A stretch of DNA of 64,000 nucleotides from Streptomyces sp. 1-11 (GTDB lineage: Bacteria > Actinomycetota > Actinomycetes > Streptomycetales > Streptomycetaceae): the NCBI RefSeq assembly GCF_007176755.1, contig NZ_BJTV01000003.1:310001-374000 (forward strand), in the 5' to 3' direction. Positions 33,161-44,586 of the stretch are shown piece by piece. The number at the start of each line of letters is the position of its first letter. Positions within the stretch are counted from its first letter, which is position 1. The notes beneath the pieces are model-generated. The model made no database searches. It was given only the letters and a program-made list of their open reading frames with translations, and was not told the DNA's origin. Made by a program: the position numbers and the translations under genes.

Positions 33161-33190
33161 TTGTGGCGGCGGCTCTAGGTCGCCTACTTT
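33161..33190 (+). promoter_or_regulatory. Promoter of the tandem tRNA-like locus
   Basis: TTGTGG (33161-33166) and TACTTT (33185-33190) are 18 bp apart. A start about 7 nt further on would fall at 33197-33198, directly at the 5' end of the first tRNA-like element. The dacA terminator lies upstream, so the locus appears to be its own transcription unit. Confidence 0.55.
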
Positions 33191-33198
33191 CGCCTCAT

Positions 33199-33273
33199 CG
33201 ACGTGTAGCTCAGCAGGAGAGCACCGGGCTTTTCACCCGGAGGGCGCGGGGGCGGAACCCGCCACGTCGGCCA
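33199..33273 (+). ncRNA. tRNA-like RNA element 1 (anticodon-like UUU, encoded CCA)
   Basis: A full cloverleaf can be drawn. The acceptor stem CGACGTG/CACGTCG is 7 bp, followed by T8 A9 and the D stem GCTC/GAGC. Its 7-nt loop AGCAGGA contains A14, G15, G18G19 and A21. The anticodon stem CCGGG/CCCGG has loop CTTTTCA (T33, triplet TTT), and the 5-nt variable loop ends in C48. The T stem is GCGGG/CCCGC, and the end is G73 plus an encoded CCA. The T-loop is GGCGGAA rather than TTCGANT, so T54, T55 and A58 are missing. It is thus not a standard elongator tRNA. Base 37 is C, also unusual. It is followed after one T by a second copy. Confidence 0.75.
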
Positions 33274-33274
33274 T

Positions 33275-33347
33275 CGACGTGTAGCTCAGCGAGCAGAGCA
33301 CCGGGCTCGGGACCCGGAGGGCGCGGGGGCGGAACCCGCCACGTCGG
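33275..33347 (+). ncRNA. tRNA-like RNA element 2 (anticodon-like CGG), abutting the next start codon
   Basis: It has the same acceptor, D, anticodon and T stems as element 1, with identical variable loop and T-loop (GGCGGAA). The anticodon loop is CTCGGGA, which matches the loop of tRNA-Pro(CGG) including G37. With C1-G72 it shows several known proline identity features, although base 73 is G. The D-loop is AGCGAGCA and lacks G18G19. The end reads G-CTA instead of GCCA, and that final A is the first base of the ATG at 33350. The differences between copies are concentrated in the D-loop, anticodon loop and 3' end. Confidence 0.72.
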
Positions 33348-33349
33348 CT

Positions 33350-35692
33350 ATGAACGACGACGCTGAGCAGCAGCACCCCACTGAGGCGAACCCCGGATAC
33401 GCGGCCGGCCAGCTGGCCGCCGCCCTCCGTACGGCCGCCCTCCACCCGGACCCCGCGACCCGCCGGCGCGGCGCGGAACGCGGCCGCAGGTGGCGCGCCG
33501 TGCTGGACGGCATGGCGAACGGCCTGCTGGCGATCGGTTCCCGCACACCCGTGGCCGGCCTGCCCGCCTGGGTCACGCCCGAGGTGGTCCGGGGCGGCTT
33601 CGCCACCGGCGAGCCGAGCGCGGGCGGCCCGCTGCTCGACCACGAGACCGCCGCCGCGCGCCGCGCCGGCGTGCCCGCGACCCGGCGGGCGCTGTTCGCG
33701 CACCACCTGTCCGACGACGGGCTGGCACGGCTGCAGGCCCTGCTCGACAGCGGCCGCTACGAGGTGACCGTCCCCGAGGAGGCCGCGCTGCTCACCGTCG
33801 CCTGGCTGGTCCGGGCCGGGGAGCCGGCGGCGGCGCTCGACCTGGTGGAGGAGCTCGCGCCGTTCGCCGACCGGCTCCGGTTCGCCCCGCGGCCGTCGGA
33901 CCGGCCGGCGCCCCGGCCCGACGCCGTGCACCGCTCCACCGTCGCCGACGCCCGCGCGGCGCTCGCCGCCCGCCGTCCCAGCACGGCCGTCGAGACGCAG
34001 CGCGAGGCACTGGCGGTCTGGCAGCCGTTCGGCGACGAACTGCTGGCGCACTGGCTCGAGACGACGGACGAGCAGGGGCACATACACGTCCCCGGCCCCG
34101 CCGACCCGTGGCACGGCCGCTCCGCCGCGCTGCTGCGCCGCTACCGCGACCTCGCCCGGCGCCACACGTACTGCACCGGGCATCTGAGGGCCAAGGAGAA
34201 CCTGGGCGTGCTGCGCGGCGCGCTGGAGGAGACCGTCGCCGCACGGGAGCTCGCGCCGCGGCGGCTCGGGCTGCTGCGCCACGCCGTCGCCTCGATGGTC
34301 CGCAAGCGCGGGCTGCCCGGCTCCGCCGAGCACACCGCCCTGCGCCGACGGCAGGCCGCCCACGCCGCGCTGCCCTCCCACCACGCGCTGGCCGGCGTCG
34401 TCCTGGACCGCCTGTCCGGCCTGCCGCGGGACGGCGGGATCGACGAGGTGGAGACCGTCCTGGCGCCGGTGAGCGAGCCGGAGGCGGACCGGACCGGTGT
34501 GCCCGCGGGCGCCGTCGTCCCCGCGGCCGTGCGCCGGCCCGTGGAGGCGGCGCTCAGCGCACCCGTCGGCACCCTCGTGGAGCGCGGCGTCGTGCCGTCG
34601 GCGGAGGTGCTGGCCGAGCTGGTCCCCCGGATCGTCGCCGCCACCACCGCCGGGGCCCACCGCGACCCGGCCCTGCGGTCGCTGGCCGCCGCCAACTACC
34701 GCGCCTTCCGCAACCGCCGCTCCCTGCTGCTGCTCGACCTCCAGCGGCAGGTCCGGGTGGAGGAGCTGCCCTGGGTGCGGGCCGTGGCCGGCCGGCGGGA
34801 CGGATCCGGGGCGGACGAGGCGGCGGCCGGGGCGCTGCGGCGGCTCGGCGGGCTCGCGGTGCGCGCCTTCCCCGGCACGGTGCTGCCGAACCCGCTCGTC
34901 CGCGAGCTGGCGGTGCTGGGCCGCCAGGCCGAGCTGGGCGCGCCCTTCGTGGAGGAACTCGCGGCCGACATCTTCATGGGCGCCTTCACCCCGAAGTTCC
35001 TCACCGCCGCCCGGATCGCGGCCGAACTCCTCGGCGAGGGCTCGCTGTACGAGCGGTACTACGCCATCGACTACGCGGCGGTGCGCGACCTCGCCGTCGT
35101 CGAGGCGGCCGAGTCCCTCCGCGGGTCCCGGGGGGCCCGTACGTCCGCCGGGTTCGCCGCGCTGTGCCGGCGGCGGGCCGCGGAGTCGGCGCCGGGCACG
35201 GGGCGGTCCGGCTCCTCGGTCGCGAGGAACGGCACGGTGATCGAGCAGGCGCAGATCCTCACCACCCACAACCTGGCCACCCTGGTCCACCGGGTCGGCA
35301 TCGACCCCGGCGCCGGCTGGGACGACCTGGCCCTGCGCTGCTTCGGCACCGTGTGTCGGCGGACCCGGCGCGTCCACCGCGACCCGCGGCCGCTCGGCGC
35401 CGTCAAGGACGCCGCCTACGCCTGGCGGCAGATGGTGTTCCACCTGTCCCTGTGCCCGCCGGACCGGCAGCGGCGCACCCTGGACCGTGTCGCCGAGGAG
35501 TGCGCGCGGCAGCCCTGGCACGTCGCCGGACGGCTCGCCCCCGCCCTCACCGGGCTGCGTCAGGTCCTGTCCGGCGGGCAGGCGGACGACGGCGCCGGCC
35601 GCCGTCTGCTGGGCTGGAGCACCGGCGGCCACTGGCTCCTGGAGGAGCCGGCGCCCGGCCCGCACGAGCGCCGGGCGGCACGGCGGCCGTGA
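33350..35692 (+). CDS. Large Arg-rich protein of unknown function linked to tandem tRNA-like RNAs
   Basis: This 780-residue protein matches no family I recognise. It is rich in Ala, Arg and Leu, appears almost wholly helical, and has no signal peptide, membrane helix, nucleotide-binding loop or obvious catalytic motif. Distinct segments are WVTPEVVRGGFATG (about 65), HTYCTGHLRAKENLG (about 270), FPGTVLPNPLVREL (about 508), ADIFMGAFTPKFL (about 540) and NGTVIEQAQILTTHNLATL (about 627). ATG 33350 is the only start in frame after a TAG at 33206-33208. It directly follows tRNA-like element 2, leaving no Shine-Dalgarno sequence. Base composition equals that of its neighbours. The high Arg content would suit RNA binding, which is inference. 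Confidence 0.75.
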   Translation: MNDDAEQQHPTEANPGYAAGQLAAALRTAALHPDPATRRRGAERGRRWRAVLDGMANGLLAIGSRTPVAGLPAWVTPEVVRGGFATGEPSAGGPLLDHETAAARRAGVPATRRALFAHHLSDDGLARLQALLDSGRYEVTVPEEAALLTVAWLVRAGEPAAALDLVEELAPFADRLRFAPRPSDRPAPRPDAVHRSTVADARAALAARRPSTAVETQREALAVWQPFGDELLAHWLETTDEQGHIHVPGPADPWHGRSAALLRRYRDLARRHTYCTGHLRAKENLGVLRGALEETVAARELAPRRLGLLRHAVASMVRKRGLPGSAEHTALRRRQAAHAALPSHHALAGVVLDRLSGLPRDGGIDEVETVLAPVSEPEADRTGVPAGAVVPAAVRRPVEAALSAPVGTLVERGVVPSAEVLAELVPRIVAATTAGAHRDPALRSLAAANYRAFRNRRSLLLLDLQRQVRVEELPWVRAVAGRRDGSGADEAAAGALRRLGGLAVRAFPGTVLPNPLVRELAVLGRQAELGAPFVEELAADIFMGAFTPKFLTAARIAAELLGEGSLYERYYAIDYAAVRDLAVVEAAESLRGSRGARTSAGFAALCRRRAAESAPGTGRSGSSVARNGTVIEQAQILTTHNLATLVHRVGIDPGAGWDDLALRCFGTVCRRTRRVHRDPRPLGAVKDAAYAWRQMVFHLSLCPPDRQRRTLDRVAEECARQPWHVAGRLAPALTGLRQVLSGGQADDGAGRRLLGWSTGGHWLLEEPAPGPHERRAARRP

Positions 35693-42981: not shown

Positions 42982-44586
42982 ATGAGCCAGGACGGCGCAC
43001 AGGAGCGGTACGCGGGGCGGACGCTGGCCGGCGGCCGCTACCAGCTGCGCGACCTGCTCGGTCAGGGCGGCATGGCCTCGGTCCACCTGGCCTACGACAC
43101 CGTGCTCGACCGCCAGGTCGCGATCAAGACCCTCCACTCCGAGCTGGGCCGGGAACAGGCCTTCCGCGAGCGGTTCCGGCGCGAGGCCCAGGCCGTGGCC
43201 AAGCTCACGCACACCAACATCGTCTCCGTCTTCGACACCGGCGAGGACGCGCTGGACGGCTCGACCATGCCGTACATCGTCATGGAGTACGTCGAGGGCC
43301 GTCCGCTGGGCTCGGTCCTGGAGGAGGACGTCCGGCAGTTCGGCGCGATGCCCGCCGACAAGGCGCTGAAGATCACCGCGGACGTGCTGGCGGCGCTGGA
43401 GATCAGCCACGAGATGGGCCTGGTCCACCGCGACATCAAGCCGGGCAACGTGATGATGACCAAGCGCGGCGTGGTCAAGGTCATGGACTTCGGCATCGCG
43501 CGCGCCATGCAGTCCGGCGTCACCTCGATGACGCAGACCGGCATGGTCGTCGGCACCCCGCAGTACCTCTCGCCCGAGCAGGCCCTCGGCCGGGGCGTGG
43601 ACGCCCGCTCCGACCTGTACTCGGTCGGCATCATGCTGTTCCAGCTCGTCACCGGGCGGCTGCCGTTCGACGCGGACTCACCGCTGGCGATCGCCTACGC
43701 GCACGTGCAGGAGGAGCCGGTCACGCCCTCCTCGATCAACCGCTCGCTGCCGCCCGCGGTGGACGCGCTGGTCTCCCGCGCCCTGAAGAAGAACCCGAAC
43801 GAGCGCTTCCCGACCGCCGAGTCCATGCGCGACGAGTGCCTGCGGGTCGCCGCCTCCCTGCACACGGCCCCGCCCAGCATCGTGCCGGGCGCCGGGCCGG
43901 CGCAGAGCGGCGCGGGCGTGGGCGCCACGGTGTTCCCGCCCGTCGACCAGGCGGCCCCGGCCCCCACCGGCCCGGTGCAGACGCCGTACCAGCCGAACCC
44001 GTACGGCGCCCCGGCGCCCACCCCGGCGTACGGCTACCCCCAGCAGGGCGGCTACCAGACGCCGACCGCGTACGGGCAGTCCCCCTCGACCCCGCCGCCG
44101 TACAACATCACGCCGCAGACGGCCGTGCAGTCCCCGGGCGGGGGCGGCGGCAGGAGCAACAAGCCGGTGATCGTCGGCTCGATCGTGGTGTCCCTCGTCG
44201 CGGTCGTCGGCCTGGTCGTCGCACTGGCCCTGAACAGCGGCGGCAAGGACGACAAGGCCGGCGGCGACCCCAGCACCTCGGCCCCGGCCCACGCGGCGGG
44301 CTACCGGGGACCGGACACCTCCAAGACGGTCAAGGAGACCGACTGCACGGAGCCGGAGGAGTCCTACAACGACGAGAAGAAGATCCAGCTCCCGGACTTC
44401 CGCTTCAAGTACATCAAGTCCGTCAAGGAGTGCGCGGCGGCCGCGGGCTGGCGCGTGACCACCAAGGACGTCGACGAGAACACCTACGGCCAGGGCGCGG
44501 TCATCGACCAGTTCCCCAAGCCCGGCACGGACGTCGACCCGAAGGACGTGGAGATCCAGCTCAACGTCTCGACGGGCAACCCCTGA
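42982..44586 (+). CDS. Membrane Ser/Thr protein kinase with PASTA-like extracellular end
   Basis: The 534-residue kinase has a Hanks domain (about 15-280) with LGQGGMASVH, VHRDIKPGNV and DFGIA. A Pro/Tyr/Gln-rich linker (about 300-390) and a membrane helix (about 393-415, VIVGSIVVSLVAVVGLVVALAL) follow. The C-terminal domain (about 435-534) ends AVIDQFPKPGTDVDPKDVEIQL, as PASTA modules do. The extracellular part may sense wall fragments. ATG 42982 behind GGAGAG opens the conserved region. It is divergent from the other kinase and followed by a terminator. Confidence 0.92.
   Translation: MSQDGAQERYAGRTLAGGRYQLRDLLGQGGMASVHLAYDTVLDRQVAIKTLHSELGREQAFRERFRREAQAVAKLTHTNIVSVFDTGEDALDGSTMPYIVMEYVEGRPLGSVLEEDVRQFGAMPADKALKITADVLAALEISHEMGLVHRDIKPGNVMMTKRGVVKVMDFGIARAMQSGVTSMTQTGMVVGTPQYLSPEQALGRGVDARSDLYSVGIMLFQLVTGRLPFDADSPLAIAYAHVQEEPVTPSSINRSLPPAVDALVSRALKKNPNERFPTAESMRDECLRVAASLHTAPPSIVPGAGPAQSGAGVGATVFPPVDQAAPAPTGPVQTPYQPNPYGAPAPTPAYGYPQQGGYQTPTAYGQSPSTPPPYNITPQTAVQSPGGGGGRSNKPVIVGSIVVSLVAVVGLVVALALNSGGKDDKAGGDPSTSAPAHAAGYRGPDTSKTVKETDCTEPEESYNDEKKIQLPDFRFKYIKSVKECAAAAGWRVTTKDVDENTYGQGAVIDQFPKPGTDVDPKDVEIQLNVSTGNP

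What the first reader, a model, noticed from the sequence alone, without database searches (positions are those of the whole stretch)
33199..33347. Tandem pair of cloverleaf-forming tRNA-like RNAs in front of an unknown protein gene
Two 73-75-nt elements, 76 bp apart, fold into complete cloverleaves with identical stems and correct T8, A14, G15-C48, A21 and T33. Element 1 even has G18G19 and an encoded CCA. Both have the T-loop GGCGGAA, so the T54, T55 and A58 of normal tRNAs are absent. Such RNAs should mimic tRNA without being normal translation substrates. They sit behind their own promoter, downstream of the dacA terminator, and run into a 780-residue orphan gene. I do not recognise this arrangement as a described system. 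A two-component RNA-protein system is the simplest reading.
Basis: partly seen in the sequence, partly recalled or inferred. Interest (0 to 1): 0.93.

Follow-up and report, generated by a model that had tools for sequence, protein, structure and literature searches.

The report
tRNA-shaped RNA and its protein partner
In many soil actinobacteria a short RNA that is predicted to fold like a tRNA, but whose anticodon is not conserved, is encoded in front of the gene for an unknown protein in every intact copy examined, so the two likely form an undescribed RNA-protein pair that would stand outside ordinary protein synthesis.

Summary
Two cloverleaf elements lie at 33199-33270 and 33275-33347 (Rfam tRNA, 52.2 and 49.3 bits). 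The 780-aa protein is no orphan: over 1,100 relatives, all-helical by prediction, no usable Pfam, NCBIfam, PHROG, PADLOC or PDB match. The element stands before the gene in 80 of 80 related loci, 50 of 50 near-full-length gene copies in 392 genomes of the genus, 7 of 7 shortened paralogues, 27 of 27 gene-bearing genomes of 394 in the class (some genes broken), 5 of 5 plasmid loci and one genome of another class. Stems covary (99.5% of cells paired; 11 of 21 pairs with double changes). Most scaffold positions show 0-1 changes on the protein tree; anticodon-loop positions 34-38 change 12-22 times, about the rate of four-fold degenerate codon sites (15.0). A promoter is predicted to start transcription at the RNA's first base; the start codon lies 1-3 nt behind the acceptor stem in 75 of 78 loci. 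Best reading: an RNA-protein module in which tRNA-processing enzymes likely release a non-decoding tRNA mimic and a leaderless mRNA, and the protein likely binds the mimic's scaffold. The cellular role is not shown. Three genomes keep the RNA beside a broken or missing gene.

The parts
33161..33166 (+). -35 hexamer TTGTGG
   Evidence: TTG-N16..18-TANNNT with the -10 ending 8-13 nt before the first element in 75 of 81 loci; 3 of 4000 random places
33185..33190 (+). -10 hexamer TACTTT; puts the predicted transcription start at about the first base of copy 1
   Evidence: start inferred, not measured
33199..33270 (+). tRNA-shaped RNA, copy 1 (anticodon loop CTTTTCA, T-loop GGCGGAA, G73)
   Evidence: Rfam RF00005 52.2 bits; own model R1 96.5 bits against 63.6 for the best host tRNA (the window copies are among the rows R1 was built from)
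33271..33273 (+). encoded CCA behind copy 1
   Evidence: sequence; not general among relatives
33275..33347 (+). tRNA-shaped RNA, copy 2, gene-proximal (anticodon loop CTCGGGA, T-loop GGCGGAA, G73)
   Evidence: Rfam 49.3 bits; ARAGORN tRNA-Pro(CGG); R1 90.7 bits
33348..33349 (+). junction CT between G73 and the start codon; the base after position 73 is C in 79 of 79 loci counted
   Evidence: cleavage here is predicted, not measured
33350..35692 (+). 780-aa protein of unknown function, predicted all-helical, the presumed partner of the RNA
   Evidence: no usable family match

Best explanation
A single promoter is predicted to drive a tRNA-shaped RNA and, directly behind it, a predicted all-helical protein that likely binds this RNA by its scaffold and not by its anticodon, so that the pair would work as one ribonucleoprotein module. 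Steps: (1) Sequence shows: a sigma-70-type promoter motif ends 8-13 nt before the first element in 75 of 81 loci, then one to four elements (usually one), then the start codon. (2) Inferred: RNase P and tRNase Z type enzymes trim the RNA; a cut just behind position 73 or 74 leaves an RNA of about 73 nt ready for CCA addition and, at the same moment, a leaderless mRNA with AUG 0-3 nt from its 5' end, a form common in Streptomyces. (3) Shown: every intact gene copy examined has the element in front of it; the reverse is nearly but not strictly true. (4) Inferred: the frozen scaffold is read by the protein; the anticodon is not read by any fixed partner. (5) Inferred, the weakest step: the RNP works like the Ro60/Rsr-Y RNA particle, the tRNA shape serving as handle or decoy that brings the protein to tRNA-handling enzymes, or holds it inactive until the RNA is removed.
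For: Co-occurrence: 80 of 80 loci kept; 48 of 50 near-full-length gene copies have the pattern element 29-90 nt before the protein match and the other two have model hits of 95.3 and 91.9 bits; 7 of 7 shortened paralogues, 73-81 bits; 27 of 27 gene-bearing genomes of 394 in the class, own genome and some broken genes included; 5 of 5 plasmid loci read, of 6 plasmid records hit; one genome of another class, with two elements. Reverse: of 50 genomes with the pattern, 47 hold the full-length gene. Covariation. Constraint by site: D-stem 0 changes, C32 and U33 0 changes, sites 34-38 15, 22, 19, 14, 12 changes. Promoter placement. Start codon 1-3 nt behind position 73 in 75 of 78 loci measured; C after it in 79 of 79. 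PMC4681348 (passages): 264 leaderless mRNAs in S. coelicolor, and most of its 12 CCA-encoding tRNAs are cut between the Cs. No neighbour family is shared by more than 14 of 85 loci, which makes the RNA-gene pair the unit.
Against: No binding, processing or expression data. The RNA is not shown to vanish with the gene: elements still score 86.9 bits beside a pseudogene (L094), 87.0 where the gene is missing (L098, genome G205 without a protein match) and 75.3 in G265, also without a match, and several broken genes keep theirs; these may be young relics, or the RNA may have a job of its own. The RNA may act only in cis. In Curtobacterium and in the forms with ordinary T-loops the start codon is roughly 11-31 nt away, mostly behind a Shine-Dalgarno-like stretch, so the leaderless step is not universal. 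The model's fold matches nothing informative, so no RNA-binding site can be pointed to. The Ro60-like role rests on analogy alone.
Confidence: 0.52

Rival explanations
1. The element acts only in cis: a tRNA-shaped 5' leader by which the protein, or a tRNA-binding enzyme, controls its own mRNA, in the manner of the thrS operator.
For: The gene-proximal element abuts the start codon (75 of 78), so a bound or folded leader would block 30S entry; 66 of 81 loci show a single copy by my pattern; codons at the ORF start are conserved as nucleotides (Ala GCT in 59 of 60 motif-bearing loci against 2.1% elsewhere in the genes).
Against: Loci with two to four copies, whose distal copies keep the scaffold; in Curtobacterium and the ordinary-T-loop forms the element is further from the start codon; the frozen sequence exceeds what pairing alone demands; elements survive beside missing or broken genes; a pairing test between ORF start and D-arm was inconclusive.
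Confidence: 0.2
2. RNA antitoxin and protein toxin, as in type III toxin-antitoxin pairs: the RNA holds the protein inactive and its loss frees it.
For: RNA units upstream of the protein gene under one promoter, sometimes tandem; patchy distribution, 63 of 392 genomes of the genus with a protein match of any length; broken gene copies exist beside kept RNAs while no intact gene without the RNA was seen.
Against: No toxin-like domain; 780 aa is far from known type III toxins (recalled); no room for a terminator between RNA and gene in most loci; no PADLOC match for the three members tried; neighbour families shown are mostly ordinary.
Confidence: 0.16
3. Genuine tRNAs: decoding, suppressor, or amino-acid donor tRNAs of ordinary kind that happen to sit there.
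For: Cloverleaf, T8, A14, U33; Rfam and often ARAGORN calls; base 37 matches the host tRNA of the same anticodon more often than shuffled loops do (23 of 37 distinct loops, null 14.3, P 0.0007).
Against: That signal is lost when the neighbouring base 36 is held fixed (P 0.14); anticodons of many amino acids, and of a stop codon, on one scaffold; pyrimidine 37 and six-base loops occur; G54 G55 in 99 of 102 rows; host tRNAs for all amino acids; found with one protein gene.
Confidence: 0.04
4. Only a processing signal: the tRNA shape recruits tRNA 3'-end cleavage to make a leaderless mRNA; the cut-off RNA has no further job.
For: Spacing and the C after position 73; leaderless mRNAs in S. coelicolor (PMC4681348 passages).
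Against: Sequence frozen well beyond what pairing needs; distal copies; forms with a longer spacer and a Shine-Dalgarno-like stretch keep the element.
Confidence: 0.06

Closest known systems
Bacterial Y RNA (YrlA) with Rsr/Ro60
   Same: A non-coding RNA with a tRNA-like part encoded beside the gene of its protein partner; Ro60 is largely helical (recalled). PMC8394870 passages: YrlA's stem holds Rsr and its tRNA-like domain binds PNPase.
   Different: YrlA is 90-150 nt with a large stem plus a tRNA-like module that is a TruB substrate; here it is a whole cloverleaf of about 73 nt without U55 in most. The protein has no TROVE or vWA match. An RtcB operon nearby was not looked for.
Type III toxin-antitoxin (ToxIN, CptIN, TenpIN; recalled)
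   Same: RNA units upstream of the protein gene, one promoter, sometimes tandem.
   Different: tRNA cloverleaf, not a pseudoknot repeat; no room for a terminator between; large helical protein without a toxin match.
thrS translational operator and T-box leaders (named in PMC8394870, passage)
   Same: tRNA-related structure in front of a start codon.
   Different: A complete cloverleaf whose anticodon is not kept; more than one copy in some loci; no synthetase-like match downstream.
Non-proteinogenic tRNA-Gly for cell-wall synthesis in staphylococci (recalled; no paper read)
   Same: T54-T55 and G18-G19 replaced, so kept from ordinary translation.
   Different: Those keep glycine identity and anticodon; here the anticodon varies and a dedicated protein gene follows.
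tRNA family RF00005
   Same: Fold and many tertiary-contact bases.
   Different: See Membership tests.

Membership tests
tRNA (RF00005), functional decoding tRNA | four-arm cloverleaf kept by compensatory change | tested here: met
   99.5% of cells paired, 11 of 21 pairs with double changes
tRNA (RF00005), functional decoding tRNA | T-loop T54 T55 C56 R57 A58 | tested here: not met
   99 of 102 rows parsed without a T-loop filter begin GGC; the others are L060 (TGC), L064 (short) and one ordinary tRNA-Ala in L077. The script did filter out T-loops that begin with T, L060 excepted. Forms in g221, g286 and G610 do carry TTCGA
tRNA (RF00005), functional decoding tRNA | anticodon conserved among orthologues | tested here: not met
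   15, 22, 19 changes at 34-36 among 79 loci; 36 distinct loops among 126 rows, some loci counted twice
tRNA (RF00005), functional decoding tRNA | aminoacylation and EF-Tu delivery | not testable with these tools
   needs acid-urea northern or in vitro charging
YrlA / Rsr (Ro60) RNP | protein with TROVE/vWA domains | tested here: not met
   no such Pfam match for P0001 (E<=1), 58 members (E<=1) or 41 members (E<=0.1)
YrlA / Rsr (Ro60) RNP | helical-repeat ring fold | tested here: inconclusive
YrlA / Rsr (Ro60) RNP | RNA bound by the neighbouring protein | not testable with these tools
   co-occurrence only
Type III toxin-antitoxin | toxin of the ToxN/CptN/TenpN families | tested here: not met
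   no such match
Type III toxin-antitoxin | terminator between RNA repeats and toxin gene | tested here: not met
   gap of 1-3 nt in 75 of 78 loci
Type III toxin-antitoxin | tandem RNA repeats | tested here: inconclusive
   66 of 81 loci have one copy by my pattern, 15 have two to four; the pattern missed at least one copy, in L005
Known anti-phage defence systems (PADLOC 2.0.0) | match of the protein to a system model | tested here: not met
   0 families for the 3 members tried

The most novel reading that the evidence does not exclude
A tRNA-shaped specificity RNA: the frozen cloverleaf is the handle for the protein, and the variable U-turn loop (C32 U33, then 34-38 nearly free) is a four- to five-base read-out, a bait or address that differs between strains and between tandem copies, so that one protein family can be aimed at, or armed against, different RNA partners such as codons, tRNAs or anticodon-cutting enzymes.
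Probability: 0.12. Interest if true: 0.97.

Novelty: categorically new. Interest (0 to 1): 0.86.

Why it matters
If the pair is real, an RNA family has been hiding inside automatic tRNA annotation (ARAGORN names copies Pro, Gln, Ser, Arg, His, SeC and more), and a large protein family without any assigned function gains its first handle. It would add a class of tRNA mimic in which shape is conserved and anticodon is not, a natural test of which parts of a tRNA are needed for processing, CCA addition and charging, and possibly a new regulation or conflict system in actinobacteria.

Tried and rejected
RNA lost together with the gene: I first read it so and withdrew it. Elements beside a pseudogene or a missing gene still score 75-87 bits with R1. 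The confidence of the best explanation was lowered by 0.03 for this.

Positive diversification of the loop: unproven. Loops change at about the four-fold-site rate, not faster. Sixteen of 18 tandem neighbours differ in loop and loop sites differ more than variable scaffold sites (54 of 90 against 32 of 90, P 0.0017), but shuffling partners among loci gives as much difference (P 0.84, or 0.28 without L002).

Loops copied from host tRNAs: the match at base 37 (P 0.0007) is lost within classes of base 36 (P 0.14).

Start-codon region pairing with the D-arm: mean longest complement 5.8, other gene regions 4.5-6.1, elements and starts of different loci 5.8: inconclusive.

Conserved neighbourhood or defence island: no family in more than 14 of 85 loci. 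Of 100 nearest neighbour ORFs, chosen by codon composition from 51 loci, the 25 most frequent of 84 Pfam families are varied and mostly ordinary, 2-oxoacid dehydrogenase leading with 7; of 29 PADLOC families 25 are shown, nearly all with one member and mostly helicase-like models that may be one protein; I did not trace it. Phages: none by tblastn; viral contigs: none, with the distant query only. Fold search: nothing at E<=0.001 for the whole protein (PDB and viral models) or for residues 480-748 (PDB); absence there proves nothing.

Papers: searches; their listings show no title or abstract start that describes this arrangement. Only passages of PMC9262613, PMC4681348, PMC7790460 and PMC8394870 were read. 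The library lacks most subscription papers and all bioRxiv preprints.

Full report
What is there. The window holds two near-identical tRNA-shaped elements, 33199-33270 and 33275-33347, four bases apart, then CT and the ATG of a 780-codon gene. Rfam scores them as tRNA with 52.2 and 49.3 bits, in the lower part of the 72 tRNA matches of this genome. ARAGORN accepts only copy 2. In the stretches I fetched, ARAGORN finds 68 host tRNAs for all 20 amino acids, among them Pro (CGG, GGG, TGG) and Lys (TTT, CTT); the closest shares 52 of 72 bases with copy 1. A model built from 57 elements, the window's included (R1), gives the window copies 96.5 and 90.7 bits and the best host tRNA 63.6.

The pair is constant. 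All 80 loci kept from 155 confirmed relatives carry the element; in L080 it lies 545 nt before the reading frame, apparently after an insertion. In 392 genomes of the window's genus (Streptomyces, by the names of its relatives), 50 hold the element by a strict pattern and 63 hold a match to the protein. There are 50 near-full-length gene copies in 49 genomes, one of them split by a frame change (G206): 48 have a pattern element 29-90 nt before the match and the other two have R1 hits of 95.3 and 91.9 bits. Seven shortened, divergent paralogues in seven genomes, whose matches begin at profile position 89-183, all have the element, 73-81 bits; some of them may be decaying. The other eight protein-positive genomes hold fragments: G166 (pseudogene, element kept), G308 (element, contig end), G064 and G377 (fragment, no element), and G057, G080, G104, G207, whose surroundings I did not read. 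In the other direction, 47 of 50 pattern-positive genomes have the full-length gene. The other three keep an element that still scores well with R1: G166 86.9 bits beside a pseudogene, G205 87.0 and G265 75.3 without any protein match. So the RNA is not shown to vanish with the gene. In 394 genomes of the class, 27 have a gene match, in 7 genera of 137, own genome and five or more broken genes included, and 27 of 27 have an element; 24 were seen by Rfam or pattern, and G906, G734 and G922 only by R1 and by eye (R1 was built from some of these rows). Of 246 genomes across the phylum, 3 have the gene, one of them in another class, again with two elements; in that class it is 1 of 66 genomes. On plasmids, 6 records match; the five whose loci I read all carry the element, among them Curtobacterium, whose proteins are 39-40% identical to this one while the RNA is 83-89% identical to the window copies. 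No phage record matches.

Two forms of the RNA. Most have C1-G72, G73 and the T-loop GGCRGNA. Genomes of groups g221 and g286 and the genome in the other class carry elements with an ordinary TTCGANN T-loop, mostly U73, mostly a CATGGAG-like acceptor stem, and a start codon some 19-31 nt away behind a Shine-Dalgarno-like stretch (read by eye). L060 has TGCGAAT, in between. An ordinary tRNA ancestry followed by loss of the T-loop signature is the simple inference.

What is constrained. Over 57 elements, 99.5% of 1,196 pair cells are standard pairs and 11 of 21 pairs show double changes; no shuffle of 500 reaches either figure (3 of 500 reach the count of pair types), and partners slid by 1-3 columns pair in 34-46%. 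On a protein tree of 79 loci, most scaffold sites change 0-1 times, C32 and U33 never, and loop sites 34-38 change 15, 22, 19, 14 and 12 times; 124 four-fold codon sites change 15.0 times on average (sd 6.0) (for L005 the distal copy stands in). Some other sites (3-70, 26, 51-63, 57, 59, one in the D-loop) also change 12-14 times, mostly as transitions or paired changes. The anticodon is therefore close to free, with a lean towards pyrimidine 34 and purines 36 and 37, and no G at 38 in 77 loops. Six-base loops occur. I found no sign of selection for difference beyond that.

How it is expressed. A TTG-N16..18-TANNNT motif ends 8-13 nt before the first element in 75 of 81 loci; the same test hits 3 of 4,000 random places. 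The transcript should thus begin at, or a few bases before, the RNA (inferred). In these 81 loci 18 tandem neighbours are 3-10 nt apart, as in processed tRNA arrays; wider spacing occurs in others, such as L114, L139 and L144. The start codon lies 1-3 nt behind position 73 in 75 of 78 loci measured; the exceptions are L005 (a nearer copy missed by that script, 2 nt by eye, found by R1), L079 (10 nt) and L080 (545 nt); L064 and L066 were not measured. The base after position 73 is C in 79 of 79. In S. [quoted passage not shown] A cut there would give an RNA ready for CCA completion and an mRNA with AUG at or near its 5' end. This step is inferred. It does not fit the forms with a longer spacer: in Curtobacterium the first ATG is 11-13 nt and the one behind an AGGGGA stretch 29-31 nt away.

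What it does. The RNA cannot be a fixed decoder. No intact gene was seen without it. The scaffold is frozen although paired sites tolerate compensatory change. The simplest account is a protein that binds the scaffold. The nearest working analogue is YrlA with Rsr, where a tRNA-like module binds PNPase (PMC8394870 and PMC7790460, passages; the latter also suggests that the module could inhibit an anticodon nuclease). It is not a member of that family (no TROVE/vWA match). Cis-control, an RNA antitoxin, and a mere processing signal remain open, with the odds given. The locus moves as a unit: no neighbour family in more than 14 of 85 loci, varied neighbours, two copies of equal score near both ends of one chromosome.

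Limits. All is sequence evidence. The counts come from 85 named loci (80 genome contigs, 5 plasmid stretches), the 392 genomes of the genus, the 394 of the class and single others; these sets overlap in part. The literature was searched by word in an open-licence library only.

Noticed in passing
window 33362-33373 and the start of the gene in related loci: Codons 5-8 of the ORF (A-E/D-Q/H-Q) are conserved as nucleotides: Ala is GCT in 59 of 60 motif-bearing loci of 79 (19 lack the motif), against 2.1% of Ala codons from codon 21 on. Purpose unknown; a translation signal of the mRNA or an RNA switch are possible.
   Followed up: partly
own genome G000:C1:676482-676551 and C30:21783-21852 (outside the window): Two odd tRNA-Gly(TCC) genes with T-loop TGCAAGG and no GG in the D-loop (40.5 and 37.3 bits), reminiscent of the cell-wall type tRNA-Gly recalled from staphylococci.
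   Followed up: no
L131 and several of L198-L204, upstream of the element: Boxes like CTAATGCGCTTTA, often twice, lie upstream of the promoter, mainly in front of the shortened paralogues (seen by eye): a possible operator.
   Followed up: no
L002:4688-4999: Four tandem copies; the last three share loop and scaffold and the linker before the last one reads ATGAACGA, so a recent duplication seems to have included the start codon.
   Followed up: no
window 44214-44299 (-): ARAGORN calls a tRNA-Pro(GGG) here that Rfam does not support; probably a false call.
   Followed up: no
G254:C1 (11.5 Mb), 587309 and 10951227: Two copies of equal score in opposite orientation towards both chromosome ends, as terminal inverted repeats would give.
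   Followed up: no
G166, G723, G922, G1030, G839, G205, G265: Gene copies that match the family only in pieces, or not at all, while the element is still recognisable: the gene is lost repeatedly, the RNA perhaps later.
   Followed up: partly
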